Source: Allomyces arbusculus (Eukaryota > Blastocladiomycota > Blastocladiomycetes > Blastocladiales > Blastocladiaceae). Taken from it: a DNA stretch of 64,000 nt. The position numbers and the translations under genes were made by a program. Location of the stretch: the NCBI GenBank assembly GCA_027604705.1, contig JADHYV010000026.1, positions 248,001-312,000 of the forward strand, written 5' to 3'. A model generated the notes under the pieces. That model saw only the letters and a list, made by a program, of their open reading frames with translations, was not told the DNA's origin and searched no databases. Shown here in pieces: positions 42,801 to 64,000 of this stretch (positions are counted from its first letter, which is position 1; the number at the start of each line of letters is the position of its first letter).

Positions 42801-45800
42801 ATGTCTACCATGTCGACGAACCCTGCCGGCGGTCTGCACAGCAGCGGTTCAGCCGTCACTCGACCTGGTTTTCTCGACGCGTTTTGGACGGCGGGCACGA
42901 CCGACGGCGCCTTGGCCGAATTTGAGGTGAGTCGATCAATCCACTCCATTTGGCCGCTCCGAGTCTTGTTCCCATACTGATCACAAAAGTTGGGCGGCAG
43001 TTTGACCTCCATTTCACGGTCCGACACCGGATTCACTCGCTGCCCGCGGCATCGCCCAAGTCGGCGCCCGCCCAGCGAGCAGCCATGTCTATCTTGCAGA
43101 TCCCCGACCCGGTCGCCAAGATTGTTCACGCGTCGGGCCACGAGGAAATGTTGATCGTGGACCTGTTCAAGGACCTCAACTACTCGATGGGCGGCCTGAT
43201 GCTCTCGATTTTGCGCGAGCTGCTGCAAGTGCCGCAACAGATGCGCGACGCAATTGTCAAAACGCGTGGGATCGCGCCGCTTGTCACTGGCGAGGAGCTC
43301 GTGCGCGTCCTAGTCGAAAAGACGATGGGCGCCGAGTCGATAGATGTCGACATGACAACAGGCGTCAAGTCGATGGCCGTTAACAAGACGGTGGGCGTCA
43401 AGTCGATGGACGTTAACAAGACGGTGGGCGTCGAGTCGATGGATGTTGATACGCCGCCGCCGCACTCGTCCTCAACGGCGAGCGACGGCAAGAGCAAGGA
43501 ACCATTGCCAGCACCAGTCGCGGAAAACAATCAAATTGACGCGACTGCTTCTGTCGTGCCAGTGGACCACGTCATGTCAGACGTTGAGGAAACGTTTGGT
43601 GCGTTTTTTGTCTGTTGATGCATTCTTCCCAGCCGCGACGAGGATTGATCCAAATTGTCGACAGCGTGGTCGCCGATCATGGATCGCACGGGCCCATCGC
43701 CGCGCCCACCATCGATCACAATCACGTCGGTTCCTGCTTCCACTGTCGCCTCGCCCGTTCCCGGTCCCTTTGCGCCGCCAGTCACGTCACGCCGATCGTC
43801 TTCATCTAATGTCGTTGATCTCGACGAGTGCGAGTACCCAAGCCCGGCGTCGTCGCCCACGACGGCCCCGACTGAGCTCCCGCCGCCGCCCAAGACTGCT
43901 TCTGGCCCGACCGTTGAGCCTATGCTCCCGCTGTCGCTCGATGGCGACATGCCCATCAACACCAACTACAACCAGAATGAGTACGGCGCGGCGTGGACGC
44001 TCCTCTCCGTGTCGGGAAAGCTTGGTAACAAGGAGGCGACTGGATCCGGGGCAGAATCGGCGCAGGACTCCTGTGCTGCGTCGCCCACTACCACATTGCC
44101 CGCGGCCGTGCCGCCTACGACCGCGTCGAGCCTGCTTTCGACCTTGGAAAACAGCGTCCCCGGCACGTCCTCTACGCTCTCCACCGTGTCACGCACCATC
44201 AACGGCCGTGCGAACTCGCCGACTCCGCACACGCCGCTCGTCTCCATGGACTCGGCTGTTTCGCTTGGCAACGACGACTTCACGCCGCTCGGGTCCGCTG
44301 TCTGCTCGGCCGCGCCGAGCACTCTGAAGATCACGAATGAGCAGCATTCGCCCGTCAACTTGGCAGCATCGTCGCATCGCCACGGCAAGTCGTCGGAGCA
44401 GGGCGAGGCCGAGCCAATGGAATGGTCGAGCCCGGCCGACGTGACGGCCGACGTGAGATTTTCAACGCCAGAGCTCATTAAGCTCTTGTTCCCGGAACCG
44501 GCGTCGCTCGAGTCGACAGCGGTGCCGAGCAAGGACCCCCTGACCAAGGTTGCACGTGATCCTCGTCTCGCGCGACTTGGGCCTGCGACTGCGTCCGCGC
44601 CCAGCAATATAATCGTGCCAGGAACACGTCCAGTCCAGCCCAAAAGCGATCCAAACCCAGAGACTCCCGTGACGCGTGGCGGCACGGTCTGGGTGCGCCC
44701 TGCAAGTTCCGTGGAGGTCCGCATTGACAGACGGCCGCGTGTTTTTGTACCGAACACTGTGGCAACGGTGGCACCTGCCGTCTCGAAATCAGCTGCTGCG
44801 CCTGTTCCCTCGCGTCCGCGTTCGCAATCACCGTCCCTCGTCGAGGAGACTACGCAGGTGGAGTCGCCGACGTCAACACTGACGCCGCTCAATAAGGCGA
44901 GTGCGGCCAATACACCGACACCGTTGCACAGCCTGACCGAGCGGTCGAGCAACATGGGATTTGTCGCGTTACCTGCATGGACGGAGATGGGGTTCTTGCC
45001 CAAGTCGCCGACGCTGGCTCGGCACGACCGCGAACCTGGGGAGGCCACGGCGCCGCCGAGTCCCACGCCAACCACGGCGTCGAATCAAGTGCGCGCGACC
45101 CGGCCAGTTTCGCCCGCTAATCTCGTCGCTGCGCTGCTCTCGCCCGTCCGGCTCGTGCCTACGCCGACCCTGCCCTCGCCAAGCAAGCCCGCGGCAGGGG
45201 CTTCACCGAGCCACCCCGTGGAATTGGCGACTAACGAGGCCAGTAACGGCGCTCGCAAGCGCGTGCGGCGTAGTATTGGCGCTGCTGACGCGCCAGTACA
45301 GCCGCCGCGCGTTTTCTCGATTGTCGAGCTCGACCATAAGCAGGATCCGACTATGCCCAACGACCGCCATGGCCCGGTGACGCCCAACGAGCGGCAGGAC
45401 CCGATCGTGCTCGCCCACGAGCGGAGGGATGCATTCACGCTCCGCGACCATCGTGATAACACCATCGCGCCGCACGACAGCCGAAACTCGGCCGGGCCCT
45501 ACCCCAACACGCGCATCCATGACGACCCGTACGCGCGTTCTCTCAATCGCGGCCGGAGCGGCCACTCCCGCTCTCGCTCGCCGAACCGCACCATGGGCCG
45601 CGATCGCGACTCCGCGGTTGGCCTCCGGGAATGTGCGCGCAAAACAGACCGGTACGTCCCAGAGCACCGCAACCAATCGCGCAGACGCGGTCGGTCCACT
45701 TGCCGCGACGACCGTCCTGCCTGCAATGGCCCACTCCCGCTCGCGAACGATCGGCGCGTGTCGGGGGCCAGTCTTGGCACGACGGCACCACCACCTCCGC

Positions 45801-46009
45801 CACCGCCTCCGTCGTTTGGATCGTCGGCGATCATGCAGGGGGTTCGTGCGTCGATGGCCACGTCGCCGCCGGCCAAACCGCCTGTCGGGCCGTCGACGCC
45901 GCACGGGTTTGTGCCGGGAACAGTGCTTGCGTCGCTGGTGGTACCATCGAGGCCGCAAGACCCTCGGCGCGCGGCGGGTGCCGCGCCGATGCACGGACGC
46001 GACGCATAA
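42801..46009 (+). CDS. Large Ser/Pro-rich disordered protein (1022 aa)
   Basis: Exons 42801-42926, 43001-43598 and 43665-46009 (74-bp and 66-bp introns; donors GTGAGT and GTGCGT). The family is not recognised. Residues 60-170 look folded (SILQIPDPVAKIVHASGHEE, DLNYSMGGLMLSILRELLQV), followed by an 11-residue repeat block (VGVKSMDVNKT). Residues 230-1022 are disordered, with many Ser-Pro and Thr-Pro sites. A moderately RS-rich segment lies near residues 865-900 (RSGHSRSRSPNRTMGRDRDS), then a Pro run (PPPPPPPP) and PHGFVPGTVLASLVVPSRPQ. The RS segment and its position directly before the RS-gene array suggest a nuclear, RNA-related protein, but it lacks the array's signature modules. Confidence 0.65.
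43328..43453 (+). repeat. 33-bp tandem repeat inside the 42801 gene
   Basis: Almost four units of 33 bp starting GGCGTCAAGTCGATGG encode an 11-residue repeat. Units 2 and 3 are nearly identical, so this copy-number change is recent and frame-neutral. Confidence 0.85.
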
Positions 46010-46572: not shown

Positions 46573-48951
46573 ATGCAACACTGGCGCCTTCCCGCCAGCT
46601 CGGCCGGTGCGCCGAGCCAGCCTGCCGAACAGCTGCAGCACCCGCCAGCACCTACGCCAATTCCGTGGACGCCGGCGGCCAGTGTCATCCCTGCTGGGAA
46701 TCATCCTGTTGCTGAGAGCGCCTCGTTGGCTGCTACTGCTGCACCGGGCCACGGCTATGGCTCGACCATCCATCCTAGCAACAAAGAAGAACAGGTACAT
46801 ACGTTTGAGCACGATAGGCCAATGAGGACGAGGGAGTGAAGAAATTGGGGCCGTTGGTGAAACGTTGGTGGTCGCTTTGGGCTTGCGTCGCTCACCGGGT
46901 CGGCCCTGCTCTCGCTCATATTCTAGTGGACGATCCTGTTTGCCGTGCGCAGCATGCCGACAGCCAACGGAGCCGTACAAGTATGCGAACCCGTCGTCCT
47001 GCGCGGTGCCTCCCCGCTATCCGCGTGCACTGGCCAATCGATTCTGGACGCGCTGGTCGACATGAAGTTGCCCTTGCCCATGGCCGACCTGGTCCTCTTC
47101 CGCTCACTTGCCTCGATCACGACGCAGTTAAACAGTCTTGTGCACCAGTCGGGGTCGCAGGCCGTTCCGGTCCCTGCGCAGAGCCACTGGTACCGCGATC
47201 TCCTCTGCGGTTCCGCTGTGCCGCAAGCAAATGGAATTGACTTGCACGCTGCAGTGGCGGGCGCTCAGGCTACGGTGACGACGCCACTTCCCACCGCTCC
47301 TGCTCCCGCGACTGATGTACCCTCGTGGCTCGCGCACCTCTCGTCGACAGTAGCCGCATCGACGACGACGCCGATGAGCCCGGCGCCGTCGGTGGCGCTC
47401 CCAAACCCTGCGGTCCCGGGCTATTTGCAAAGCGAGCCAACACCGACCACGGTGCCGGCGACCGTGAAGCCGACGGAATCAATGTCACGCGAAGCCAGTG
47501 TGCAGGACTTGCTCGCGCAGTTGAATGGGTTCGCTCATCACGAACGGTTTGGTGCAAATTCGGCTCCCCTTGTCGAATTAACGGTGCAATCTCCTACCGC
47601 TGCTCTGCCGGCGCAACCATCTGCCTCTGCAGTGTCGGCAATGTACCCGAGTGCTCTGAGTGATGTAGTGACGTTGGCGGCACCCCCTGTGCCGACGGCG
47701 CCGACGCCATGGACGCCGTACGCGCTCACGACAGTGCCGGCGGCCGTGCATGCGCAGTACTACCACCAGCAGCTGGCGGCAATGCAGATGCAGCTGCAGA
47801 CGCATGAGATGCACTTTCCGCCACAGCGGTTGCAGTCGCAACCGCTGCCTTCTGTTGAGTCGGTCACGGCAGTCGATGCATCTGCTCCTCAACCGCGCGC
47901 GAAGCGTGACCGCAGCCGCAGTCGTAGCCTGAGTCAACGCCGGCGGCGGCGGGATTCTCTCGACCGACCTCGTTCACGGTCGCGCGACCGCGTGTCCAAG
48001 CGGCGATCTGACTCCCGGGCGCGGTCGCGGTCGCGTGATCGTGCTGCCTCGCCAAGTTGCAGTCGCAGCACTGCGGCCTCGCATCGCCCTGCTCATGATT
48101 CCATGTCACGCAGTCTCACCTACCGTCCCTTCCCCAAGGTCCGGTTCCGCGCACACATGTACCCAAAGGGCCAGCGGCCGACCAAGCCGCAGTGGTTTGA
48201 CCGGCTGTCTCATGCGTTGCGCGACGTGGGCACGCCGTCCGACTTGGATTATGATGCGGACGCAAATGTGTTGCATTTTACGTTGCCGGCATCGCACGAG
48301 TACGTTTTCTGCTTTCGTTGACGAGGACTGCCAGCGCTGGCGAGAGACTAACGCTTTTTGTGAATGCGCGCAGTGTCGTCTCAGCCACCATGGCAACGTC
48401 AGGGATTATTATCGGCCAGCTCTATTTTAAGGTGCGTTCACCGATTTTTTGTCATTCCGTTTCACGCTTTCTCTCCCTGACCGAGATGCTCTTTTCGACT
48501 GCATTCTAGTTTGAGCCTGTCGACCCGGCCGACATGCCCCCCGCCGAGGTCCTGCCAAGGGAACCGCGCGCGTGCTATGCGCTCTTCAACATCCCGCTGC
48601 GCGCGGCGTTCAACGAGCTTTTCCAGCTCATGAAGGCGAGCGGCGTCTTTGCTGACCTCGACCTACACTCGCGCGTGAGCCCGCGCAACAACACGAGTTA
48701 CGGGTTCATCACGTTGTTGCGACGGTCGCAGTTCGCGGCCGAGCGGCTCGACGGCGTGTATGTGCAGGGACGGCCGATCAAGGTGCTTTGATTTCTTTCT
48801 GTTTTGTTGCTTGGTCGTGTCTCATCGCGCTCACCACGATGGATGGTCTTCTTCGCTCCAGGTTGTGCGCATCGAGGACCCGGAGCATTTCTTCAGCTCG
48901 CCACAACACGTGGTGGATTTGGTGGACCGGATGGCACACGAAGTTGACTAA
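46573..48951 (+). CDS. RS-domain/RRM-like family, member 1 (intact)
   Basis: Exons 46573-46794, 46927-48299, 48374-48431, 48510-48782 and 48862-48951 (introns 132, 74, 78 and 79 bp; phases 0, 2, 0, 0); 671 aa. Modules: Pro-rich leader; exon 2 start WTILFAVRSM...VCEPVVL and a helical segment; Ser/Thr/Pro linker; RS domain at about 405-465 (KRDRSRSRSLSQRRRR, RDSLDRPRSRSRDRVSKR). Next come PQWFDRLSHALRDVG...NVLHFTLPA, the tiny exon VVSATMATSGIIIG and the RRM-like module (YALFNIPLRAAFNELFQL, MKASGVFADLDLH, SYGFITLL, LDGVYVQGRPIK). The end is VVRIEDPEHFFSSPQHVVDL. RS plus RRM is the plan of SR splicing factors (known), but the order here (RS before RRM) and the other modules fit no named family. 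A nuclear RNA-binding role is inference. Confidence 0.72.
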
Positions 48952-49302
48952 GAGGCGGACCACGCGGCCGTGTCGGAGCCGGGTCGGTCGGAAGGATGCG
49001 CTGCGGCAGTCGGTCGGCCAAGACGCGGTGGTGACGCGGCCGTCGGCGCGCCAAAGTGTCCATCATTTTGCTCAACGATGCATCCTCATTTGTACTGAGC
49101 AGAGCGCGTGTCAAGACGGTGCTGGTGGGACATGGTTCTTGGCGAAGCGAAAACGAGGGACATAACTTGGTGAACCCGGTTCAGTACCTTTTTGCCCGCA
49201 GAGATACTTGAACTCCACCGACCCACCGCCCCACGTGATCCGCGATGCTTCACCCACTGCTCATCCCGACCGCAACAGCAAGCACCTGCACCACCAGCAC
49301 GC
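48952..49302. other. Spacer between RS-family members 1 and 2
   Basis: A 351-bp same-strand spacer with nothing coding that I can support. Confidence 0.45.
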
Positions 49303-51292
49303 ATGACGACGCGGCCGTCATCCATGATCTCCTCGGCTGCCGCCGCTGCGCATGGGACCCACCCCGCGCCCATCTTGCAGGCCAATGAAGCGACCATGAC
49401 AACGTTGACACTGAAGACGCACTCTTCTATCGCAGCGCACGATCTCGTTTTTTCCCCTCCATTGATTGTCGACGGCGTCGCGGCGTGGACGCAGTCGGAT
49501 CATATGCCGCAGCTGCAACAGCTGCAGCCTGTGGGAGCTCAACACTGGCTGTCGCGCCCCACCAACGCCAAATCGGGCCAAATCAGAGCAGATACTAGTC
49601 TGACCAGCCGCGCGGCGCACTGGACGCCTCGGGTCGATACGAATCCGGGCAAGGTAAAGTTTGACGACGTTCGGACTCCCGCGCGAACCCGCTCTGATCC
49701 GTCGTTCTGCTATCCAGATCACGGTTCTGTTCGGTCTTCAATTCCCTTCTGGATCTTCCGCGAGCACCGTGAGCGTCTTGGAACCGCTCGTCGTGCCGCA
49801 GGGCGCGGAGCCGCATGCACTTTCCGACTGGCTCGCGACGAGCGTTTGCGACGTGCCCGAAGCTGTGGGTCGGCTGATGTGGATGCTCTCGCAGGTCCCC
49901 GACCATCTATCACGCGTCGTTCAGAGCGCGGACGCTGTTCCAGTCCTTGTCAAGGAGCCAGAATGGGCATCGGACTTGCTGCATGTGTACGTTGTCTGTG
50001 CTTCGCATCATGAAAGGTGACACTTCCTAATACGATGATGTGCTCGGCCCACGCACCCAGAATCGACCCATCGCTGCCCTCACCAGCGACAACGGCACCG
50101 GCCACCCCGCCGCAATCGTCTCCACCCTATGATCGCGATCCCGGCCGTCATGTAAGTGACGCACCGACCCTTCCCGCAGGCGACGCACCGACCCCGCCCG
50201 CAGGTGACGCACCAACCCGGCCCGCCGGCGCCGTTCCGCTCCTGTCGCCGCGCGAATACAATCACTCCCGGACCATCAGTCGCGCCCTACGCCCTTCGCG
50301 GCGATCCACCCGCTCGCGGTCCCCTTCCCGGTCGTACCGCCCGTCGTCGTCGCGTCGCGGTCGATCGCGTTCCCCACGTGCCGCTTGCCGGAGCGGCGGC
50401 AGTGACGATGCGGTCGTGATCTCGACCAACCCGCCAATCGCGACGGGCAAACCCACGTCAAGGGCGCGGCAGTACTTGACCGAAGTGCAGGTCGTGGCAA
50501 CAGGCCCGGCCACTGCGATTCGCAATATGGTCGATCCGATGTGGGTGCACCGGTTTCTTGCGCGGTATATGCCTCGGTACTTTGTGATGAACGAAGCGGC
50601 GCGCGTGATTCGCATGTGGATGCGCGAGGATGATGGGTGCGTCCTGCCAGTTTTTCGTGGCGTGCGGGTGGGTGCAGGTTGGGATGGAGCTTAACATCTA
50701 AGAACCGAATTGAATAGGGTCGCGCGTATTGAGCTCGAGTCAGGGATAGTCATGGGCCACCTGCGACTGAGCGTACGTGATCGGGTGCGGCAACTCTCCT
50801 CTCCCTACTTTCCTGATCTATGCGTTGCATGTCCATAGTTTGAGCTCGTCCACCGCCCCGGCGCGCCTTCGGTTCCCCGCCCTGCCGTGCCCACAGAGCG
50901 CGTCTCAACCTACCTTATTTTCTTCCGCGACGTGCCGGGCAACGCTGTGCGCGACCTCGCGCGCAAGCTAGAGCTGCTCGAGATCAATGGGTTCGTCGAC
51001 ATTCCCAGCAGCAAGCACATGGCCGTGACGCCACGGTGCTGGTACGCATTCATGTCCGTGTTCGCGTCGAGTCGGACACTCGGCGAAGCACTGGATGGGG
51101 TGATGTTTCGTGGTTACCAGCTTCGGGTGCGTTCTTGTTTCCTTTGCGTCATTGATGGACGACGAAGTCCTCACACGACGTGGTGAATGATGCGGCTAGG
51201 TTGTATGTCTGCACGACACAGCGCGGCTGTTTGCTGCGGGCGACGACCGGGAGCTCAAGAAGGCGATCGAGTCGCACGCATGGACGTGGTGA
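49303..51292 (+). CDS. RS-domain/RRM-like family, member 2 (intact)
   Basis: Exons 49303-49653, 49718-49986, 50061-50636, 50718-50772, 50839-51126 and 51200-51292 (introns 64-81 bp); 543 aa. Same modules in the same order as member 1. Exon 2 starts ITVLFGLQFPSGSSASTVSV then LEPLVVP (the Cys of CEPVV is replaced by Leu). The RS domain is compact (RRSTRSRSPSRSYRPSSSRR). Then come WVHRFLARYMPRYFVMNEAA with VIRMWMRED, the tiny exon VARIELESGIVMGHLRLS, and the RRM-like exon (YLIFFRDVPGNAVRDLARKL, GFVDIPSS, YAFMSVFAS, LDGVMFRGYQLR). The C-terminal exon is VVCLHDTARLFAAGDDRELK. It has an extra intron after exon 2 that member 1 lacks; member 3 shares it. All junction phases match the other members. 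Confidence 0.72.
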
Positions 51293-53002
51293 GAAGAGAG
51301 CTGACGATGGTGATTTTGCCGTGTTCTGTGAATGAAAAAGAAAATTGCTTGTCTCCGCATCACCGTGTCGATCGATGAAAATCAGATGTTCTCTTGCCTC
51401 TCACAGCTCTGGCGAGTCGCCGCGCGACACATAAATGTAAACGAGTTCAGTTTGGCTTTGAAAGATAACGCGAACGGCGCTCATCTTTCTCAAGATGTTC
51501 GCGCGAGCGACCGGACTTCGAGCTCGAGGCTTAATTGAGACGAAAACGCCGCCACCGGATCCTTGATCCGCCGCAACTACAGACGCATGGACACGTGCCT
51601 CCGTCAATGTATCGCTTGCGAAAAGAAAGGAAAAGAAGACAAGAGAACGGCACCAACCATGATCGGTGCTCCAATCGGCGACACCTGCTTCAAATCGTGA
51701 ATGCTAATCCAGTTCTTGCTCGCGACCGTGAGAATCGTGTAAAGTCTGCAAAATCGTGTGAAGTCTGGAGGATACAGACAATCCGCATCCATCAGTTCAA
51801 TCCGCATCCATCAGTTGGTCATGGGCACGGTGACCGTCGCTGAAAGCAAGCAAGGAAACATGACGAACCCCAGGTCCGGTCGGCCGGGCACGTCCGTACC
51901 CGCGTGCGAATTACCCAACCATAGCCCCGTTTCACGTGCGGCACAGAGAAGCGGGCGCACGGCGACGGGAGCGTTGATGGCTACGGACGTGGCGCCCGGC
52001 CAAGCGCGTGGGTAGAGATCGTCGGCCGGATCTGCTGGATAACAGACGATCGCACAGCCATGGTCAAAGAGTGGGAGGGGAGCGAAATGAAGATGTAAAA
52101 CGTAAGCCAGCGAGAGGTGTTATCGCTTCGCTGACAAACCACCACCCACATCCGTTGCCATCGGCACTTGGAACATGAATAACCTGCGGGCTGGCGCTGC
52201 GTGCAGCAACATAATTCCTGGCATCGTCCGAAATTTTGCAAATATTCGTGTAGAAAAATGTACTCTGTTGTCGCAAATGGACACCAGCGGTGCCGGAGCT
52301 GTGAGCTGTCACGCCATGTCAGCATCAAAAGAAGAAGCAGGTCACGCAGAAGTTGCCATCGATGGACTGTGAAGAGATATGTAACATTTGCTGCGCTCCA
52401 CGCGTCATCTCTGCTTGGTCACATAGGTGAAACATCAATGGGACTGCAGAAAATTTGTGTTGTGTACTCTTTGAGCGGCCCGCAGGTAATGGGCCATAAT
52501 GTGACAGATCGCCAAATCATGCGGAGGATATGACGGACAAAAAATGGAAGTGGATTGGATGCGGGTGCTTCGAACTACATTTGGGCATGACCTTCAACAA
52601 CGTCGCGACCACGACCATCATCGTGGGAGGTAACGGCGAGTCAATTGGGACGTCGAACATTCAATACCAATCGCATGCCCTCCCAGTACAGCACCTGTAA
52701 GAAATGAAGCCACGGGTGGTTGACCTAAACGGTCATTAACGCAATTACAGTTTGGCAGCGAGTTCGGGGACCTCGTGGTCAACGCGTGCGGGAGAGGTGA
52801 ACACAGCGGCCAGGTCGGCAATGCTACATACCTCTCAGAAACCAAGAGATAATGTGAGAGCAGCAAGGTCGGCCAGGGCCAAAGCAACGACGCGAAAGCG
52901 AGGAGCGTGGCACACGTACAAGGATTCGTTTCCCTGTTCCAGCTTCCAGCCCTCGAGCGCCTTCACTTTACCCGAGTCCTTCCTCGACACGGTCATAAAG
53001 GC
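51293..53002. other. 1.7-kb region with no supported gene
   Basis: Lower GC than the flanks and full of short frames. An 18-bp direct duplication (AATCCGCATCCATCAGTT) sits at about 51779-51815. The final C-terminal exon of the minus-strand pseudogene that starts near 54640 may lie here but could not be identified. Confidence 0.4.
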
Positions 53003-54640
53003 CTAATAGCTGGCCATGAAAGAGAGGGGTAGTGTGCAGAGGCGTGTTAGCATCAGCGCCCGTGCGTAGCTCTGCAAAAAGAGCACGCACCCAAGGTCTG
53101 GCCGCCCAAGAACATGGCACACAGGAGCGCGACTGCTTGGAAGATCAAGCGAAGCCCGCAACCGCAACTTCTTGAACGTCCTGAACATCGATCCCTCATC
53201 CTTTGGCACCCCAAACACGACAAACGTTTCCCGGGACCGGGTATGGAGAAGAGTCGTCTGCCGGGGTGGCCGGTCGGATCTGAGGGCCAGGTCAAGCAAG
53301 GGTCAGAAGCAATTGTGCTTTGTCAGTCGGAGCAAAATGCACACGCACATCGACCCTGATAAGATCAACAATGAAACCCGACTCGGAAAGCACGTCGCGC
53401 ACGATCCTATTCAACCGCATTTGACCAGTTGTTCAATCTTTCTGCGCCGTCATTGATTTGCCGTGCGAGAATGAATACGAACGTGGGCGACCAGGTCATG
53501 CAAAACGTCACCTGGCTCTTGGCGACATCGACCACCACGTTCTGCGGGTTACGCAAAAACGATAACGCCCGTGAAAGCCGCTTTGCCCAGCTTGAAGTAT
53601 TGTTGGGCAATAAAGCGTTGCCAGTCAAGTGCCCATCAAACCAAACGACTCCGCGTGAATCAGCGCGCGGACTCCAAGCGTGTTGATTCCCAGCGCGTTG
53701 ATCCCCAGCGAGTTGATACCCAGCATGCGAATTCCCGAATTGGGCGAAAATGTTTGGGTGCGGACGCGGGGTCGCGAATGGTGACGTTGACCGCGACAAA
53801 ACTTGTGAGCGTGCAGAAGTGCGAGAGTCAGCGCGTGCGTACGAGGGTTCAGGCGAGCGCGAACGTGAGCGCGTATCGGAACGCGGCGAGTTGCAATGAC
53901 TGAGCTGGCAAAAAGAAGGGTGCGAGCCGGCGCGTGTGTGCGAGCGGCCAGGCGAGCGAGAAGGTGATTGCGCGTCGGACCCGCGTGGCGAGTTGGGATG
54001 GCCAAGCTGGCCAAGCTGGCCAAGCACAGCCGCGACCTCGTCATCAAGTGAAGGGTGCACGATACCGTGTGATGAGGCCGGTCCTGACTTCGCTCGCGGC
54101 CGCAAAGATCATCGCAGCCAGTAATTTCGAGTGCAGTCGGAGCGGGCAGCACGTGGGAGCCACCCTCAGATAATTTGCTGTTGCAAAGCCAGAAACGGGC
54201 GACCAAGAGTCAGTGCTGGCACGACACTCCCATCCGTACTTGCAGTCGATGCGACAACAAGATCGTGGCGCCATTGCGTCGTCGCCGACAAGGTGAAAGG
54301 AGAACACGACGCGGCGTGAGCAACAGTCCGCAACTATGTCGCAGCGTTGATCAACGTTTGCAACAGCGCACGAGCAGGCGCGGGCAACATCGCAGTCGGG
54401 TCGAGCAGAGCAGCGACCAAGGAATTGCTGGCTGCATGCAACTGCGGCGGCATCGAAACAATTGGCTCGCAAATGGCAACAGGAGCGACGGGGAGAGAAC
54501 TGGTCCGCCGCCAGCTGCGGGCGGAAGCGGACGGGCATGGTCACGGTCATTCTTGGTGCGGGCATGATCGTTGCGGCGGTGCCCGCAACGGGTGGCATTG
54601 GTACGCCGGTAGAGAGTTGCGGCAGATGGTCCATGGTCGT
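53003..54640 (-). pseudogene. RS-domain/RRM-like family, minus-strand member (decayed)
   Basis: Recognisable pieces in family order on the minus strand. VAICEPIVSM with AASNSLVAALLDPTAMLPAP and TTQWRHDL occupy about 54530-54240. The RS domain is at about 54000-53770 (SPRSDTRSRSRSPEPSYARA). Then come NNTSSWAKRLSRALSFLRNP with NVVVDVAKSQVTFCMTW, the tiny exon IVRDVLSESGFIVDLIR near 53390-53340, and the RRM-like exon (ETFVVFGVPKDEGSMFRTFK) at about 53240-53003. The leading segment and the CEPIV block lie in different frames, and a TAG follows LINAAT inside the first module. It therefore looks dead, though some exons remain open. It is the only array member, with the right-edge one, on this strand. 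Confidence 0.65.
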
Positions 54641-55973
54641 GGGCGCCGCAAGTTGATGATCATGAACAACAGCAGCACCCGTAACGAGAGAGCCGATTCA
54701 AATGAGCAAGCGGAGCATGAAGCATGTGTGCGAGAATGACGCGGTGTGCGCAAGCGTGTGAGTCATTGAAGCAGCAACGGAGATCCAACCCGACCGCAGC
54801 GCATCCCCGAGCCCGCCGCGGTGCAGTCGCGGCAGACCAGACCAACGACTCGGCGAAGTGGCAACGGGACAGCCAAACTGGCTGCAACTCCGGCGCCAGC
54901 GACCCGTTACCTGGTGAAGTGGCCGGCCCTCTGCAGGCGCAACCCATTGGCCGTGACTCGACTATTCTTCTTCATGCTCCAGCATCTCTTTCAATCCGAC
55001 CAGTTGCAATGAGCTCAACGAACGTCAGCGCTGCAACACCTCATGTACATCTATTGGCTATTGATTCATGCAGCCATCCGACAGCGCAGACTCGATTCGA
55101 CATGGCCAGCTAATTGACATCGCTGTGGGCACGACATCACAGTTTTCTATTGACGTTGGTGTCCGCTTTCCCCCGAAACCAGTTTGTGAAGGAGGTTCTT
55201 GCCGCTGCGAAATTATAGTCCCATGCCAAATTGTATGCAAGGATGCGCGCGGCCGGCTCTGGCCTGTCGTCAAAGTGGATTAGCGTTGGATCAGATATCC
55301 AAAGTCGCCGGCATCGCGACTGGTGTATTCGGGCCTCGACCAGGCCTCCCTCGCCGTGGCGATGCTGCTTGGCCTTCAACTCTCCTCCTGCATGCTGCAT
55401 GGACAGTTGGGACACGACTCTCACTACGGGGATAATGTGACGCGCGCCCTCTTGTTCTGGGACCACCTTGGCTCAGCATTTTCAAAAACGGCTCGAAAGA
55501 ATGCGCAACATCTGGGCGCAGGCTGCATGCAGGTGGCAGCCAGCTGCTGCGGCTGAACTCGAAACTGCACGCCACTTTTCGTTTCTTCCCGGAGCGCCTC
55601 TGTCGTTCTGGAGGCGCGTGGATGAACCACGGATAGAGAACGCGCCTGCACTGCTCCCCGAAGGTCGTTCTCCCCGACAACACGCGGCCAACAAACGCTC
55701 CATTCGAACAACGGCAGCCGACGGCTCGAAGTTTTCGGCGCCGACCGCTCCTGGCTCGTGTACCAGCAGTGGCCAACAGCGCCAGCATCCAAAGGTCCCG
55801 ATCAAGATAAAAAACATCATTTCGGCGCGGCCTCCCCATCCTGGCGTCCATATATACTTGCGCGACGCCATGGCACTCGAGCAACAATCCCAGCGGCGCT
55901 TGATCTCGACGCAAACCTCACCATTTGTCGCCCCGCCGTTTGACCCCAAGTCCCAACAAATCCGCCGCGCACC
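54641..55973. other. 1.3-kb region upstream of the ZIP transporter, no supported gene
   Basis: Short frames on both strands without family resemblance. It ends with the TATA box of the transporter gene. The 5' exon of the decayed minus-strand RS gene could lie at its left end but was not found. Confidence 0.4.
55850..55857 (+). promoter_or_regulatory. TATA box of the ZIP transporter gene
   Basis: Reads ATATATAC, about 117 bp before the ATG at 55974, in an otherwise GC-rich stretch. Confidence 0.6.
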
Positions 55974-57074
55974 ATGACTGTATCACACGAAACGACGGCC
56001 GAGCCCAACTACGGCCTCGCATTTGCCGTGGCCATTGGCGCGGGCCTGTCGACGGCCTTTGGTGCCGCTTCAGTCAAGTTTGGCTCGCTGCAATCACCAC
56101 GTTTCCTGGCCACGGGCATGGCACTCGCTGGCGGTGTGATGTACGCATGGATTCTCGCTGCATCCTCAACGGTCTGCTAGGGTTCAGGCGTATGGGAAGC
56201 AAGAATACGCTCGCTTGGAAGCGCGCCATTGCTGACTGGCCCCTGTTGAACTGGCGATAGGTTATATGTGAGTCTCTTGGACATCTGGATGGAGTCCAAG
56301 GCCTCGTTCGAAGAGGCGTGGCCAAGCGAAACCGGCAAGAAGCACGCCTACATTGCCGCGACGGGCATGTTCTTTGCCGGCGCATTGCTCGCAGTCGGCA
56401 TGGAGGCCGGCGTCAATTGGCTCGAGTCGCGGCTGCTGCGTCGCGGCGCGTCGGGCGCTCGCCCGCCATCGCGTCCTGCATCGTCGAGCCCGGACCCGGA
56501 GGCGGCCGTGACATCAGCCATCAAGGACAAGCCGCGCGATAGTGATCCGCGCGACGCGGCGCAGACGGCAGAGCAAGTCATGTCGGCCGAGGACCGCGCG
56601 AGTCTGCTGCGCACGGCCATGGTCACTGGGATCGCGCTCACGATCCACAACATCCCGGAAGGCCTGGCCACGTTCATCTCAATGTGCTCCAGCGTCGCGT
56701 CGGGTCTGCCGCTTGCTGTCGCCATTGCCGTGCACAACATTCCCGAGGGCATTTGCGTCGCCGTGCCGATTCTCTACGCGACCGGGTCCAAGTGGAAGGC
56801 GTTCATGTGGGGCACCATCACGGGCGTGTCAGAGCCTGTTGGCGCTGTGCTCGGCTATGCGATCTTGAAGTCGACCGACGCGGCCAACTTGTCCACCGTT
56901 TACGGCGTCCTGTTTGGGCTGATCTCGGGCATTATGACGTATATCGCCGTTGCCGAGCTGATCCCAACGGCGTTGTCGCACCACAAGAACCCTCGCGACG
57001 TGGCGGTCATGGTCTTTGCCGGGATGGCGATTATGGCTGCGAGTCTCGTCTTGTTTGAGGTCGCTGGCGCATAA
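55974..57074 (+). CDS. ZIP-family zinc transporter (ZupT-like)
   Basis: Exons 55974-56140 and 56261-57074 (120-bp phase-2 intron, GTACGC...TAG); 326 aa. Family role (known): moves zinc and other divalent metals into the cytosol. Splicing restores the first helices (AFAVAIGAGLSTAFGAASVK, GGVMLYVSLLDIW). The metal-site motif HNIPEG occurs twice, at 185 and 214, on adjacent helices (LTIHNIPEGLATFISM and AIAVHNIPEGICVAV). Further helices are VSEPVGAVLGYAIL, GVLFGLISGIMTYIAVAELI and VMVFAGMAIMAASLVLFEVA. The variable loop at about 110-155 is Ser/Pro/Asp-rich, not His-rich. It is the only non-RS gene in the last 17 kb, and its 3' end was copied to 59545. Confidence 0.92.
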
Positions 57075-57271
57075 TGATGGATGCGGTTCGTTCAGTCGTG
57101 TTGTTGATTTTGTGATGGGTTTCTTTTGCGTGTGTAAAAACAATGGAGGTGTGATTTGATTTATTGTGAAATTGACGCTTGGGTCCCTTCATGCCGATCA
57201 CATCACACAAAACGCGAGCGAGTGGAAATCATAGCCCAGAATCTTGACCGAACTGGATCAACTCGCTGCAA

Positions 57272-59330
57272 ATGAATCCGCTCACGGCCGACAGCAACGT
57301 GCCCTCGAATGCGGCGCTGTATCCGCGCACAACATGTCAACCACTAACAAGCGCGACCGCGGTCCCTGCTCTGGCGGAGGCTGCTGCCTATGACCCGTCG
57401 CTGACACTTCCGGCGCCTCCTGCACCCGTCCACGCCGCTGTTAATGCCGCAGCTGGTGATGACGAGGTACATACACGTTTGTCGCTTCCTTGAGTGGTGT
57501 TGGTTTTCGTTGGTTGAAGTGTCTCACTACATCTGGGTCGCAGCTCGTCATTCTCTCTGCCATCAGCGCACCAACCATGCCCACCGACCCGCATCCGTCC
57601 ACAGTCCAAGTGTGCGAGCCCGTTGTACTCGCCAGTCGGGACCGGGACCAGGGTCGACCAGCGCGTTCGCTCGTCCAGGAGCTCATGGACGCGCGCACGA
57701 CGCACCCTCTGTTGGTTTCCACTAGCTTGATTGTCAAGAGTTTAATCAGCATGACCTCCAGGGTGACCGAAATGGTGCGCGTGTCGGGAGGCGTGCCCAT
57801 GTCGGTGCCGGCCGCGACCAAGTGGCACCTCCACTTGTCCTCGATCGAGTACGTCTTTAACTCCGCCAGACGGACGTTACGACACCATTCTCACTGTGCC
57901 TGTCAAGGGACTGCCATCTGTCTCGTCGATCCTTGACCCGCTCACCGGCACGCTCATCGCTGTCAAGGTCGCCGCAGCATCGTTCGCGCCGTGAACATTA
58001 ATGGGCCGCAGCAGGTCCCGCATGTGGGCACGGTAACGGTCGTGGTCGCGCCATCCGGCGTCCTCGCGGAAACGCGACCGCTCTCGGTCGCACTCACGGT
58101 CGCGATTGACACGCCGGAGTCGCAGCAAGGCGCCGTCCCGATAGCGCCAGAGAAGTCGCAGTCGGAACAGCAGCCGCACAGCGCCGCACGCGAGCGAAAA
58201 GATCCGCGGCCGTAGCCGCAGCTGCAGTCGGCGCCGATCGGCATCGCCTATGCAGTGGCACGCCGTTCTCGATGGTCGGACACCTCCACTGCGCGAGCTC
58301 GCCAAGAAAATGGTCAAGTTTATCGGGAAGTTGACCGGCGGAAATGAGCACCGCTTAACGAGGCACCCGCGGTGGATGGGCCGATTGAACTTTGTGTTCA
58401 CGGATTTGTACACTCCGCGGCACGGATCGGTCGATAAGGTGCAACACGTGCTGACGTTTTGGGTGCCGCGCTATGATGGGTGCGTATTAGTTCGTTTAGC
58501 GGTGCGTGCAGGGGACGACTGATTCGCTTGGACACGCTGTCTCTCACTCAATGTGTGGCCAACAAGGGTCGTTGCCGACGTGATGCAGCAAAACGGAGTC
58601 GTTATTGGGGCCACCCGTATCGATGTCCGTTCCTTTGCGTTGAATCAACGCCGTCTTCCCAACGGCGGAGTACTTTTGATGTGCGAAATTGACCAGCTTC
58701 CACCGGTCATAGTTTGAATCATCCGATCCTAGCGACGCGCTTCCACCCGACGAGCACCCACTGCAGCGCGACGTGTACATTGTTCTGCACACGCCGCATA
58801 ACCACCAGTTACTTATTATGGTCCAAGCAATGCGCGCGCAAAACATTGCGGGCGATCACGACATGGTTGGTTGCTCGGTCCCAGGCACGTCCATTCAGTA
58901 CGTACAAGTTTGACTGCGCGGCTTCAGCTGGGGAGGTTTGGCTCACTCCGACAGACGACGAACGTTGCATTCCAATTATTACGCGGTGTTGACCGTGCCG
59001 TCGAACAACATGGGCAACGTCATGGAGCTCAACCAGTGTTGAATGGTTGGCAAGCAACTCCGGGTATATGCGGCTCCCCATTCGCTGCCCTTGGTCGCTT
59101 TTGCTTGGCCATGCCGAAGTGGGCGCAGCACGTTCCCTACACTAGCGCGCTTTAACTGGTCTGGTTGGCTATGCTGCCCTCGATGTAGGTGTTCAAACTA
59201 AACGACGCCAAGGCTGTGTTTGCTCACCCAACCCGGCTCGCGGCCGAATTGGAGACCATGCTGAAGCGGTCCGTTGACGGCTCGGTCACCTTGAGCCAAT
59301 TGAAAATCTCTGAGTCTGGTCGTCTCGTGT
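57272..59330 (+). pseudogene. RS-domain/RRM-like family, decayed member after ZIP
   Basis: The 5' part is intact: exon 1 57272-57466 and exon 2 57544-57848 (LVILSAISAP, VCEPVVL, LVQELMDARTTHPLLVSTSL, RVSGGVPMSVPAATKWHLHL). The RS frame at 58019-58250 has two stops (58034-58036, 58142-58144). Further on, KKMVKFIGKLTGG with HVLTFWVPRYDG, the 58-nt exon 58567-58624 (VVADVMQQNGVVIG) and the 185-nt exon 58713-58897 keep exactly the lengths seen in member 3. The next acceptor AG (before 58980) is lost, and a TGA interrupts the RRM module at ELNQC. A last-exon match (DAKAVFAHPTRLAAELETML) starts near 59189. Close similarity to member 3 shows it was once a full copy. Confidence 0.75.
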
Positions 59331-59544
59331 TGAACAGTGTATTTTTGCACCCTGGCCCATTTCTATGTTGCGCCCTTGTTGCCAATTCGATTGCATTCAA
59401 GCCCCTCCAATAAATTTTACAAGCGGCCCCATAAGCATCATGAAATCAACAACTGTGGAGAGGGAGTAAGAACAAGCGCGCATCGCGATGTCCTGTTTAT
59501 GCGCGTGAGTGTGTTGCTGTACGAATCCTCTGCCTCGACCGCGT

Positions 59545-59830
59545 GTGCTCCACAATGCAATCCTGAAGACGGCCGACGCGGCCAACCTGTCCATCTTTGA
59601 CAGGATCCTGGATGCTGGATCCCGGATCCTGTTTGGACTGATTGATGTCTGGGCTTGCGGCAACTTTCCTGCGCAGGAACCTGCTCACAACCTGACCGTC
59701 ATGGTCCTTGCAGGGACGGCAGCCATAGCCGAGCAAGGGTGCGCTGTTAGTTCGATCTTTTAGTGGGTGTTCGAGAGAGAAATGTATCGATTCTTTAGCG
59801 TGGGCAAAACAATGGACGTGTCTCGTTGGA
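59545..59830 (+). pseudogene. Decayed copy of the ZIP transporter 3' end
   Basis: AILKTADAANLSIFDRIL matches AILKSTDAANLSTVYGVLFG of the intact transporter, then FGLIDVW, NLTVMVLAGTAAIAEQG (for DVAVMVFAGMAIMAASL). Even the 3' UTR phrase AAAACAATGGA is kept. The 5' two thirds of the gene is absent. It sits just before RS member 3, exactly as the intact transporter sits before the decayed RS member, so it marks the edge of a duplicated unit. Confidence 0.8.
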
Positions 59831-59854
59831 TGTGGCGCTCTTGTGTCTTGTGTC

Positions 59855-62573
59855 ATGAATCAACCATCACATTCTGCTGAGGACCTGCCTCCGTCGACCT
59901 GGCCTGGTGCCCAACCATCTGACCACCGACTGTTCATTGACCACAACTCGCTGCAAATGGACGCGCGCTTGGCCAACGACGGCACGGCGTTGAGTGCGAC
60001 GCTGTTCCCGCGCATGGCATGGCGACCGCCAACAACAGCAGCAAGCACGGCAGCTCCCCGTCCCAACCATCTTCACCTCGCGCCGGCCAGCTCCACACCT
60101 GTTGTACAAGCCGGCCTCGCCGCTTTCCACGCCCGCAACAACGTGCAAATCAGTTCCACACCGGCCGTGCCCTTCATTCAACATTATGCTGCGCCAGCTG
60201 CGCTCCAGCCCTCCCTTTCTGCGTCTGCCAACATCGCGTCGCACCCGCGCATTCACCCGGCTCCTTCATTGACCTGGTCCACGAAGATTGGGGCTGCTGT
60301 GCCGGGGCCATCTTCAGTGCTTCCATCTCACTCTGCACCTATTCCTGCTGATGGTCACGCTGCCGGAGACGACGAGGTAATGCACAATCGCGACCAGAAT
60401 CTGGCGCACGGCGTGGCTCACCACATCGCCGCGATTTGGCCCCAGGTGATCATTCTCTTTGCCGTTCGCGCGCCAATCAAGCTGGCCGGTGCGCATGCAT
60501 TTGCGGCGCATGTTTGCGAACCAGTCGTGCTCGTGGGCCAGAACCAGGACCGTCCAGCGCGCTCGCTCGTCGAGGCTCTCATGGAAGCGCGCACGACGCT
60601 CCCGTTGTCGGACCCCACCAGCTCGCTCGTCAAGAACTTGATCAGCGTGACCGGTAAGATGGCCGAGATTGTGCGCGTGTCGGGCGGCGTGCCCATGTTG
60701 GTGCCGGCCGCGACGCAGTGGCACTGCGGCTTGCACCCGGCCGTGTACGTGTGTGCTCGCCACCTGGGAGGATCGAAGCAGTGTTAATCGTGCTGGCCCC
60801 ATTTCCCACAGTCTCGGCGATACGCTGGCCATTTCTGCACCTGTTGCAACACCATCCGTGCAGGTGCCTGTCCATGCTCCGCCCGCACCGATCCAAACAC
60901 CACCCGTACCCGCCCAAGCCCTGCCCGCATCCGTCCAATCGCCGCTCAGCTCGCCAGCAAGCCCATCAGCGGGCAGCATTCCGCACAGTTGCGAGCGGTC
61001 GCCCAGCCTGGCATCATCTCGACCCCGCGCTCACTCGCGATCAAGGGATCGCAGCCAATCTCGTCGTGACCGAAGTCGCTCGCCGGTGCGCAAGTCTCGG
61101 CCCAATTTGCGGTCGGAATCGCGGTCCAGGTCGCGTTCCAGGTCGTGGCAACGGCACCCTTCACGTCGTGAGCGCCATCGCCGCAGAAACGCTTCACGGT
61201 CGCGGTCGCGGTCGCGGCAGGGCAGGTCTACCCGCAGCCGCGCAACGTCTCAGTCACGGTCACGGTCGAGGTCGCGCCCGCGCCCGCGCCGGTCTGGTTT
61301 GGCCCGCAGTCGGTCGCGGTCGCGGCCGCGGAAGCGCCGGTCCCCTCCTGTGCGCGGTCGGTCGCGATCGCGCTCACCGCAGTGCCGGTCCGCACGAGAC
61401 CAGATCGGTTCCAAACCGCGCTCACGCAGGGCGAGCCGCAGTCGTAGTCGCACGCGCAGTCGCAGTCGCACGCACAGTCGCAGCGTCGAGCGGGCACGTC
61501 GGCGGTCGGACCGGCCACGGGCTCGAGCCCCAATTTGTGACCGTGACGCACGCCGTCGCCATCGCTCCGCGTCCCCAGTGCTATGGCGCGACGATTCTGG
61601 CCGTCGTGCGGCCGCTCGTCCATCTGAAGCCGAGCTGGTCAAGACCATGATCAAGTTTGTCGTCAAACTGAGCGGCGGCACGCTCAAGGACATGATGAGC
61701 CATCCCAACTGGTTTGGCCGGCTGAACTTGGCGTTTCGGGACGTGTGCCCGCCGCAGCACGTGCTTGCTGATGAGGCGCGCAATGTACTCACGTTTTGGG
61801 TCCCTCGGTCGGCGTCTGACGCGTACGTGTTGAGATGCCTGTTTGTTGGTGTCGCTGGGGGTGCGGGGAACTGACTCGCTTTGGCCTGGTTTTCTACTTG
61901 ACTTGTGCTTGGCTAGAGTGGTTGCGGACGTGATGCGCCAGTCTGGCGTCGTGATCGGCTGTACTCGCTGCGATGTACTTTTTGACGGAATCGAGACGGG
62001 TCGAGCCCCTTCCAAGGTTTGCGATATTGACTGAACGAGGCCTTTGCTCGTCCATGCACGTAGTTTGAGCCGGCCGATCCGAACGATGCGCCCTCACCCG
62101 ACCAGCACCCGCCGGACCGCGACGTTCATGTGATCCTGCACTCGCCGCACCACGGCTCGTTCCACTTGATGGTGCAGGCGTTGCGCTCGCGCAACATTAC
62201 CGGCGATCTCGACATGATGGGCCGGACGGTGCTCGGCACGAATATCGAGTACGACGACCTTATACACGGACTCGTGATGCATGACGCTGATGGCACGTTT
62301 TGTATTCGTGGCTAGATTCGCAATCTTGACCGTGCCGTCACACAATACGGGCTGCACCGAGGACCTCGACAAGCATTGGGTTGACGGCCAGCAGCTGCGG
62401 GTACGGCTCGCCGCGTATCGGGCGCGCCTCCCGTGCCTTTTGCTGACGGATTTGCTCCACAGGTGTTCAAGTTGGATGACGCCAAGGCCGTGTTCGCTCA
62501 TCCTGGACGACTCGATACTGAGCTTGAGGCGATGTGGACGCGGTCTGTTGTTCCTTCGTTGTGGGCCACATAA
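59855..62573 (+). CDS. RS-domain/RRM-like family, member 3 (intact, largest RS domain)
   Basis: Exons 59855-60376, 60446-60744, 60812-61822, 61917-61974, 62064-62248, 62316-62400 and 62463-62573 (introns 62-94 bp); 756 aa. Exon 2 starts VIILFAVRAP and has HVCEPVVLVGQNQDRPARSL and RVSGGVPMLVPAATQWHCGL. The RS domain is very long, about residues 335-540 (SRPRAHSRSRDRSQSRRDRS, RSRSRSRPRPRRSGLARSRS). Then come ELVKTMI, KLSGGTLKDMMSHPNWFGRL with NVLTFWVPR, the 58-nt exon VVADVMRQSGVVIG, and the RRM-like module split by an extra intron (DVHVILHSPHHGSFHLMVQA, then FAILTVPSHN, WVDGQQLR). The last exon is VFKLDDAKAVFAHPGRLDTE. A start at 59843 would add four residues. The RS length and RRM-like fold suggest a nuclear speckle or splicing role (inference). 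Confidence 0.75.
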
Positions 62574-62929
62574 TTCATGTCATGTAAGGATCCCACGCTC
62601 AAGATGGCTCGCGCTAATCAAACAGGCGACAGAACATCAAAGCAAATAAGTGCAGCCTGAAAGCTGCCAAGGGGGCACGCAATGATTTGGTGAGCATGGG
62701 CGCCAGGACGCTTTGTCAACTGGCCCAGCTCCATGTCTATTGACGTGTGGTTTCTCAGTCGTAAAGAGGGGACGGCGGGCGGGTGGAAAAGGGTCTGAAC
62801 GCTGATTCCAAATTGATCTGCAACGTTCTCAATGCCAGAGATCAGACTCGTGGATCTTGTCACAACCTTTCCACTTCGGCCAGCCACACATCGTGAGTTG
62901 ATTGACAACTCTTTTTGTTGTCAAGAGTG
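62574..62929. other. Spacer after RS-family member 3
   Basis: No gene is recognised. Presumed 3' flank. Confidence 0.4.
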
Positions 62930-63300
62930 GACCCCGACCGACCTCATGCTCGCTGCAAATGGACTACCCGCAGGCCAATTTCAATTCCACGGCTTGGCGA
63001 CCGCCAGCTGCCGGCACGACTTGCTCGGCTCCACCGACACCACATGCCCGCGAAGTCACTCAGGACATTGCCCCAGCAATGCAAATGAGGATCATGTTTG
63101 CGCTGCGCTTCCGAGTCACGCACGAGGGGAGCGGACGACGAATTGCTGTGCGCGTCTGCGAACCCGTCAAGCGAGCTGCAATCGGCTACGTGATGGGGCC
63201 ATCGGTCATCACCATCAAGCCGTCTATGACGACTGAGACCAATCAATGCCGGCTCGACCATGAACACTATTGCGGTGGCTATACGTGGTGTTCAAGCTGA
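62930..63300 (+). pseudogene. 5' fragment of an RS-family gene
   Basis: CSLQMDYPQANFNSTAWRPP parallels NSLQMDARLAND...MAWRPP in exon 1 of member 3. MRIMFALRFR...VRVCEPVK parallels the exon 2 start (VIILFAVRAP...HVCEPVVL). The frame runs into a stop soon after, and no RS domain or later module follows. It is a truncated duplicate, probably left by the same unequal exchange that made the other copies. Confidence 0.6.
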
Positions 63301-63648
63301 CGGTTTTCGCTTGATCGGCGCCGGCTCTTGCGACGCTCAAATCTGGTTCCATTCTTCAGATTGCCCAAATCTCAGATTGAAGCGGTTCATATTACGTTTT
63401 TGATTCCTTTCTCCTTGTTCCCCACCTGGTCGGGCCCGTATGCGATGCGAGGTCCATATGTGCAGTGACCTGAACGTGGCGGCATGGCAAGCACCTCTTG
63501 TTCATGCTTTGATATGTACATGCGTGCGGCAAGACCGCTGCAGTTGTGGCCGGTGATCGCCACTCGGGAGAGAAATCTGCATGTAGCGAGATCGGTAAAA
63601 AATTGACGAACTATGGGCTGGCTGGGGAAACTGGGGCCAAGAAGTAGA
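63301..63648. other. Spacer between the 5' fragment and the right-edge gene
   Basis: AT-richer than average, no coding feature. Lies on the 3' side of both neighbours. Confidence 0.4.
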
Positions 63649-64000
63649 TTAATCGATATATAACCTGTTTGGCAATCTTGCGAACCTCCTGCTGCAAACG
63701 ATCAGGGTCAGCAACACAGCCTTTGCGTTATGCAAGAGGACCACCTACCGCGACCACGAAACAGTCAATCAACACGTAAATCAACAACGCAGACAATTTC
63801 GGCCAAACGTGGACAACACGGACCCGCAACCACTTTCCGTTGATGACGACGCGATCCAGGTCTTTCGCGCGGCCAAGGGCATTGGGCGCCATGGTCAGGA
63901 ACCCATACGACACTTCGGTACTGGGCAGTTTCATGCTGTAATTGAGATCGGCATCTAGTCGACACAGGCCGTGCGCGCTTATGGCCTCCACGAGACTGTT
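63649..64000 (-). CDS. RS-domain/RRM-like family, right-edge member (partial, 3' exons)
   Basis: Runs off the window. Exon 64000-63824 encodes the second half of the RRM-like module (VEAISAHGLCRLDADLNYSM, SYGFLTMAPNALGRAKDLD, VVINGKWLR). The layout matches member 1 (SYGFITLL...LDGVYVQGRPIK), and the 79-bp intron (donor GTCCGT) sits at the same place. The last exon 63744-63649 starts VVLLHNAKAVLL, matching VFKLDDAKAVFAHP. After that the better match (DPDRLQQEVRKIAKQV) lies in the next frame, so the C-terminus may be frameshifted. Whether the gene is intact cannot be judged without the upstream part. Confidence 0.6.

What the first reader, a model, noticed from the sequence alone, without database searches (positions are those of the whole stretch)
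46573..64000. Locally expanded, apparently undescribed RS-domain + RRM-like gene family
Seen: at least seven loci in 17 kb share one module order (CEPVV module, RS domain, Trp/Phe helical module, 55-58 nt exon coding V-V-x-x-x-M...G-[VI]-[VI]-[IM]-G, RRM-like module, C-terminal DAKAVFAHP helix). Intron phases are conserved. Three are intact, one partial, three decayed. Known: SR splicing factors combine RRM and RS domains, but with RRM first, and they are not usually found as rapidly turning-over tandem arrays. Inference: a lineage-specific family of nuclear RNA-associated proteins evolving by birth and death.
Basis: partly seen in the sequence, partly recalled or inferred. Interest (0 to 1): 0.85.

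Follow-up and report, generated by a model that had tools for sequence, protein, structure and literature searches.

The report
Expanded fungal RS–RRM protein gene family
A tandem cluster of genes encodes proteins that join an arginine-serine-rich stretch to a real but very divergent RNA-binding domain and an unrecognised front domain; some twenty copies, several of them decayed, lie in the same genome, which points to a fast-changing family of nuclear RNA-binding proteins.

Summary
Profiles built only from copies outside the window recover all seven loci at 46.5–64 kb with at least one module, S5 weakly. S1, S2, S4 are intact; S3, S5, S6 decayed; S7 is cut by the window end, and its continuation shows it decayed too. 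Splice models give 671, 543 and 722 aa, all GT-AG. The 55–58-nt exon and the intron phases recur in paralogues on other contigs. The family is not only local: at least 21 copies lie on six contigs of the 25.9-Mb assembly.

The 'RRM-like' module is a true but divergent RRM (HHalign Prob 90 against eight canonical RRMs, best of 150 shuffles far below; PDB profile search best E 3e-8), though single sequences miss Pfam. The 'Trp/Phe module' plus the 55–58-nt exon may be one second, degenerate RRM split by an intron (profile test negative). The N-terminal 'CEPVV' module had no convincing match in Pfam or PDB. S3/S4 are a tandem duplication that also copied the 3' end of a ZIP transporter gene.

Best reading: SR-related RNA-binding proteins evolving by birth and death. 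New variant of a known kind. Lineage restriction and expression could not be tested.

The parts
46573..48951 (+). S1, intact gene, 5 exons: 46573-46794, 46927-48299 (CEPVV + RS + first part of RRM1), 48374-48431 (58-nt exon), 48510-48782 (RRM2), 48862-48951 (C-terminal helix); 671 aa
   Evidence: splice model; profile hits
49303..51292 (+). S2, intact gene, 6 exons: 49303-49653, 49718-49986, 50061-50636, 50718-50772 (55-nt exon), 50839-51126, 51200-51292; 543 aa
   Evidence: splice model; CEPVV and RRM2 profile hits
52757..54495 (-). S6, decayed copy: CEPVV 54495-54346 with a stop just after, RRM1 pieces 53646-53476 and 53414-53352, possible RRM2 strand 1 at 53281-53144, possible C-terminal helix 52831-52757
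   Evidence: CEPVV E 2.4e-9; RRM1 pieces 6e-5 and 0.5 or 0.0075 and 0.018; the last two pieces are weak (E 0.88 and 0.09) and rest on order
57272..59272 (+). S3, decayed copy: CEPVV 57544-57843, RRM1 58295-58486 + 58-nt exon 58567-58624, RRM2 58713-58901 and 58968-59039, C-terminal helix 59189-59272; two stops in RS, one in RRM2
   Evidence: start codon by eye
59957..62573 (+). S4, intact gene, 7 exons: 59957-60376, 60446-60744, 60812-61822, 61917-61974 (58-nt exon), 62064-62248, 62316-62400, 62463-62573; 722 aa
   Evidence: splice model; profile hits
62960..63300 (+). S5, decayed N-terminal fragment (first exon and start of the CEPVV module)
   Evidence: E 6.5e-4; E 0.011
63700..64000 (-). 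S7, 3' part of a minus-strand copy that continues at least 1.2 kb into L009; RRM2 exon open, CEPVV module in three frames, end of the first RRM1 exon not found
56846..57071 (+). 3' end of the ZIP zinc-transporter gene (PF02535), the source of the copied tail
   Evidence: Pfam E 8e-33; duplication
59544..59750 (+). decayed copy of the ZIP gene's 3' end just before S4, marking the unit that was tandemly duplicated
   Evidence: 59544-59610 is 79% identical to 56846-56912; the rest by eye in translation

Best explanation
The loci are members of a divergent SR-related protein family. Each intact protein has a private N-terminal domain ('CEPVV'; a low-confidence model shows short strands plus helices), a linker with an RS stretch, a module that may be a degenerate RRM split over two exons, a second module that is an RRM and keeps the two RNP1 aromatic residues in most members, and a short C-terminal helix. 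Most likely the second RRM binds single-stranded RNA. The RS stretch, phosphorylated by SR-protein kinases, would send the protein to the nucleus and couple it to other RS proteins of the splicing or mRNP machinery. The CEPVV domain would act as a specific partner-binding module. Gene number changes by tandem duplication and decay. Shown: homology, gene structure, RRM identity of the second module, RS composition, one tandem duplication, low dN/dS between S3 and S4. Inferred: RNA binding, nuclear location, phosphorylation, any role in splicing.
For: RRM2: HHalign of 10 members against 8 canonical RRMs Prob 89.9, score 39.7, 76 columns; best of 150 column shuffles 11.4; reversed 3.4. PDB profile search: 73 chains at E<=1 (60 shown), best 3.3e-8 (cS22), then Prp24, and at E 0.007-0.06 RBFOX, RBM39 and U2AF65. 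AlphaFold2 model of the S1 exon has the order b-a-b-b-a-b. Only 3 of 72 alignment columns are at least 80% aromatic: RNP1-3 (10 of 10), RNP1-5 (8 of 10) and one in strand 1 (9 of 10). RS: S4 has 62% R+S over 200 aa and 72 RS/SR dipeptides (shuffle mean 27, max 40 of 500); S1 has 24 (max 21); over 50 aa S1 reaches 68% and S2 62%. Conserved splicing: C123 paralogue phases 0-2-2-0-2-0 as in S4; C30 paralogue 2-0-0 from the CEPVV exon on, as in S1. S3 versus S4 dN 0.26, dS 0.92 over 230 codons. Tandem unit with the ZIP tail.
Against: No transcript or protein data. No single RRM2 reaches Pfam RRM_1 (0 of 10 at E<=1), and none of the 93 RRM_1 matches listed for the genome lies in a family locus. With the five window members alone the RRM comparison is weaker (Prob 19.5, score 22.8); the non-window members carry it (Prob 94, score 44.7). 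RRM1 is not detectable as an RRM by profile comparison (Prob 0.1, below its own best shuffles); its only PDB match is E 0.3. The strand-1 aromatic of RRM2 is out of the canonical RNP2 register, and S4, the most RS-rich of the three modelled window genes, has H/F/I at the three positions. The RRM2 model is of moderate confidence (pLDDT 68.7, pTM 0.45) and Foldseek gives 0 matches at E<=0.001, the best being phenylalanine hydroxylase, acetohydroxyacid synthase and NikR, with RRMs lower in the list. The RS/SR dipeptides of S2 (19) are within shuffles of its own composition (max 20). dN/dS says little about S4 alone, since S3 is decayed.
Confidence: 0.68

Rival explanations
1. The proteins are diverged paralogues or orthologues of a known RS-first splicing factor such as U2AF65 or RBM39, with the CEPVV domain as decoration.
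For: RS stretch before the RRM modules; RBM39 and U2AF65 RRMs are among the PDB profile matches (E 0.01 and 0.06).
Against: The best matches are to other RRMs (cS22, Prp24); no full-length match to any Pfam family at E<=1; the third RRM (UHM) that marks those proteins (recalled) is not seen in the gene models.
Confidence: 0.07
2. Secreted or host-directed effectors that interfere with a host's RNA processing, comparable in idea to the SP7-like effectors of mycorrhizal fungi.
For: Gene turnover, clustering and private domains are common in effector families (general knowledge); SP7-like effectors affect host splicing (abstract start of PMC11333574 seen).
Against: No signal-peptide-like N terminus in S1, S2 or S4 by eye (no predictor was run); RS plus RRM is typical of endogenous nuclear proteins; the life style of this organism is unknown to me.
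Confidence: 0.08
3. A decaying, mostly non-functional repeat family (relics or transposon cargo) whose open copies are just young.
For: 4 of the 7 copies on C26 are broken; one C123 copy has exactly lost the intron between the two RRM1 exons, as in a copy made through RNA.
Against: S3/S4 dN/dS of 0.28; intron phases and domain cores kept among paralogues about 20-35% identical; open multi-exon genes on C26, C123 and C30; Pfam finds no transposase or reverse transcriptase in S1, S2, S4. No dedicated search for terminal repeats was made.
Confidence: 0.1
4. RS-containing nuclear proteins whose RRMs bind protein rather than RNA, so that they act as scaffolds in chromatin, transcription or export.
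For: RRM1 lacks recognisable RNP motifs; the strand-1 aromatic is out of register; S4 lacks F/Y/W at two of the three positions in RRM2.
Against: RNP1 positions 3 and 5 are aromatic in 10 and 8 of 10 members.
Confidence: 0.15

Closest known systems
Canonical SR proteins (SRSF family)
   Same: RS stretch of at least 50 aa with over 40% R+S, joined to an RRM
   Different: RS lies before the RRM, the RRM is too divergent for Pfam RRM_1, extra N-terminal domain
SR-related proteins with RS first (U2AF65, RBM39; Tra2 in part)
   Same: RS before RRM (recalled for the known proteins)
   Different: no UHM or third RRM, private CEPVV domain, C-terminal helix, many and partly decayed gene copies
RRM superfamily (cS22, Prp24 as nearest PDB profile matches)
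   Same: RRM2 aligns over its whole length, RNP1 aromatics mostly kept
   Different: 14-16% identity in the profile alignments; strand-1 aromatic displaced; single sequences missed by Pfam
Birth-and-death tandem families
   Same: tandem units, decayed copies beside intact ones, several clusters
   Different: the content is RNA-processing type, which is usually conserved and low in copy number (general knowledge)

Membership tests
RRM superfamily (second module) | sequence profile similarity to RRMs over the full domain | tested here: met
   HHalign Prob 89.9, score 39.7 against a best of 11.4 in 150 shuffles; PDB best E 3.3e-8
RRM superfamily (second module) | b-a-b-b-a-b fold | tested here: inconclusive
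   predicted order fits but pLDDT 68.7 and no Foldseek match at E<=0.001
RRM superfamily (second module) | aromatic RNP2-2, RNP1-3, RNP1-5 | tested here: inconclusive
   RNP1-3 10/10 and RNP1-5 8/10; strand-1 aromatic 9/10 but out of register
RRM superfamily (first module, Trp exon plus 55-58-nt exon) | profile similarity to RRMs | tested here: not met
   HHalign Prob 0.1; single PDB match E 0.3 to TUT1 2e5g
Pfam RRM_1 | single-sequence score above cut-off | tested here: not met
   0 of 10 RRM2 members at E<=1; S1, S2, S4 full length 0 families at E<=1
Canonical SR proteins | RS domain at least 50 aa, over 40% R+S, RS/SR dipeptides | tested here: met
   S1 0.68, S2 0.62, S4 0.74 over 50 aa; 14, 14, 25 dipeptides in those windows
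Canonical SR proteins | amino-terminal typical RRM with the RS domain downstream | tested here: not met
   RS precedes the RRM modules in S1, S2, S4; definition from passages of PMC9479744
SR-related proteins | RS domain plus RNA-processing or RNA-binding context | tested here: inconclusive
   RS domain and RRM present; function untested
U2AF65/RBM39 | three RRMs, the last a UHM (recalled) | tested here: not met
   no third RRM-like module in the three gene models
Lineage-specific family | absence from related organisms | not testable with these tools
   no other eukaryotic genomes held; phage, viral and prokaryotic collections gave no relative

The most novel reading that the evidence does not exclude
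A multigene, rapidly turning-over set of RS-RRM proteins with a private N-terminal recognition domain serves a variable, conflict-driven RNA function in a zoosporic fungus (for example RNA surveillance of mobile elements, self/non-self or mating-stage splicing control, or host-directed splicing interference), so that splicing-type factors here evolve like immune or effector genes.
Probability: 0.15. Interest if true: 0.8.

Novelty: new variant of a known kind. Interest (0 to 1): 0.47.

Why it matters
RNA-processing factors are usually conserved and few. A family of SR-related proteins that duplicates, scatters and decays like effector or defence genes would be an unusual case of rapid evolution in RNA-binding proteins. 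It adds a divergent RRM branch that Pfam misses and an N-terminal domain without a convincing match in the libraries searched. The recurring 55–58-nt exon is also a handy marker for finding further members in fungal genomes.

Tried and rejected
Tried without result: Pfam with full proteins and with single modules (stray single-member matches only, best E 0.029 to 0.1); PDB search and fold search with the CEPVV module (best E 0.53; no Foldseek match better than E 1.3 on a pLDDT 67.6 model); relatives in phages, IMG/VR and GTDB contigs (none). Telomere test: no exact four-fold TTAGGG array was found in the assembly (the tool warns that simple repeats can be skipped in DNA searches), so the idea that the clusters are subtelomeric, suggested by their nearness to contig ends, stays untested. 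A tree of 16 CEPVV modules has no branch at the tool's high-support mark and long branches; only S1 with the C30 copy (93/86) and S3 with S4 (83/61) are worth mention. A claim that all three RNP aromatics are conserved was dropped after the register of the strand-1 residue was checked.

Literature: six searches (listed 1 of 1, 10 of 10, 11 of 11, 12 of 544, 15 of 18 and 12 of 13 papers) showed no description of such a family in the titles and abstract starts listed. One paper on family expansions in early-diverging fungi, PMC8778642, was searched by term only and has no mention of RRM or RNA recognition. This does not show that the family is unpublished.

Full report
Observation. The window is C26:248001-312000 of a 25.9-Mb assembly in 197 contigs. 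Three intact genes could be modelled with GT-AG introns and no stop: S1 (671 aa), S2 (543 aa), S4 (722 aa). To avoid circular proof, profiles were built only from copies on other contigs; they recover all seven loci with at least one module, and the reversed window gives no hit at E<=0.1. S5 rests on one weak hit (E 0.011), S7 on RRM2 alone. S2's and S7's first-RRM modules are not hit by the outside profile; they were found with a profile that contains them. S3, S5, S6 and, with the sequence beyond the window, S7 are decayed.

Gene structure. S4 has seven exons with cumulative phases 0-2-2-0-2-0. A paralogue on contig C123 (470 aa) has the same six phases and a 58-nt exon at the same place, although its modules are only 21-35% identical to the first row of each module alignment. 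S1 lacks the intron after the CEPVV module and the one inside RRM2 (phases 0-2-0-0). The C30 copy, read from its CEPVV exon to its stop, is open over 611 aa with phases 2-0-0 and a 58-nt exon, so it lacks the same two introns, and it groups with S1 (93/86). In one search the C30 model was begun out of frame and gave no protein; one search replaces it. The second C134 copy has phases 2-0-2-0 and a 58-nt exon over the part modelled, which starts after its CEPVV exon. GC at third codon positions is 0.69-0.71 against 0.52-0.57 in introns.

Extent. Own-genome searches with single proteins and profile scans of the fetched contigs give CEPVV-bearing copies on C26 (7), C100 (5), C99 (2), C123 (2, a third at E 0.0016), C134 (2) and C30 (3), in all at least 21. 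C34, C165 and C195 have weak matches that I do not count. Seven of the 21 were rows of the first profile and match it by construction. Further RRM2-only matches lie on C123 and C30. The searches state that counts are lower bounds. Whether each copy outside the window is intact was examined for three only (C123, C134, C30). Another C30 copy (238.4 kb) has an open frame of 1022 aa but was fetched only in part.

What the modules are. The second RRM-like module is an RRM homologue. Profile comparison of ten members with eight canonical RRMs gives Prob 89.9 and score 39.7 against a best of 11.4 in 150 column shuffles; the five window members alone give Prob 19.5, the others Prob 94. A PDB profile search finds 73 chains at E<=1; of the 60 shown most are named RNA-binding proteins or splicing factors, while a few names (such as KIAA1579 or PES4) do not tell. 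A shallow AlphaFold2 model of the S1 exon shows b-a-b-b-a-b at pLDDT 68.7. Foldseek gives no match at E<=0.001; phenylalanine hydroxylase, acetohydroxyacid synthase and NikR lead, and three RRM entries (2cqc, 2do4, 1wg5) are among the first 50. That these leaders share the ferredoxin-like plait with RRMs is recalled. Two RNP1 aromatics are kept in 10 and 8 of 10 members; the strand-1 aromatic is off the RNP2 register. The Trp/Phe module with the short exon has the length and, by eye, the strand-helix pattern of one more RRM (clearest in the C123 paralogue), but profile comparison is negative, below its own best shuffles, and the only PDB match, TUT1 2e5g, is at E 0.3 (that this entry is an RRM is recalled). 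The CEPVV module is predicted as short strands plus two main helices at low confidence and has no convincing match. The RS stretches pass the published composition rule for RS domains.

How the cluster arose. The 3' end of the ZIP transporter gene (56.8-57.07 kb, Pfam E 8e-33) recurs, decayed, at 59.54-59.75 kb before S4, and S3 and S4 share 70-74% DNA identity over four aligned stretches. So one visible event is a tandem duplication of a unit of about 3 kb made of the ZIP tail plus one RS gene. After it one copy (S3) decayed. S3 and S4 differ with dN 0.26 and dS 0.92 over 230 codons, which speaks for purifying selection during most of their divergence. This is birth and death in the usual sense.

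Mechanism. Most likely the intact proteins are nuclear: the RS stretch is phosphorylated and mediates import and contacts with other RS proteins, RRM2 binds RNA, RRM1 is a partner-binding or helper domain, and CEPVV gives family-specific contacts. None of these steps was tested. The canonical SR definition asks for an N-terminal RRM with RS downstream (PMC9479744, passages seen); that is not met, so these are SR-related at most. RS-first proteins with RRMs are known (U2AF65, RBM39, recalled), so the order itself is not new. New, as far as the libraries searched can tell, are the divergence, the front domain and the unstable copy number.

Limits. Phage, viral and prokaryotic collections gave no relative.

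Noticed in passing
window 42926-46009 (+): Possible eighth, very divergent member: a weak CEPVV match (43091-43288, E 0.0035; frame open 42926-43615), then a 786-aa open frame (43649-46009) with an RS-like stretch. No first-RRM or RRM2 hit lies between it and S1.
   Followed up: partly
G000:C123:1083-2394 (-) (L010): A family copy in which the two exons of RRM1 are fused exactly at the intron site, as if copied through RNA or by precise intron loss; no RRM2 hit follows it.
   Followed up: partly
C26:316122-316392 (L009) and C123:1-266 (L010): A stretch of about 270 bases 94% identical between the end of C26 and the start of C123, near two clusters of the family; a recent repeat or an assembly link.
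   Followed up: no
window 29603-30257/30905-31559 and 31976-32692/33265-33965: Another duplicated region in the window, two pairs about 75% identical over 665 and 731 columns, not hit by the RS-family profiles.
   Followed up: no
window 1336-5286 (+): Gene with ankyrin repeats followed by a DIL (dilute) domain.
   Followed up: no
whole assembly G000: No exact (TTAGGG)x4 array found on either strand: telomeres are missing from the assembly, use another repeat, or were skipped by the search.
   Followed up: no
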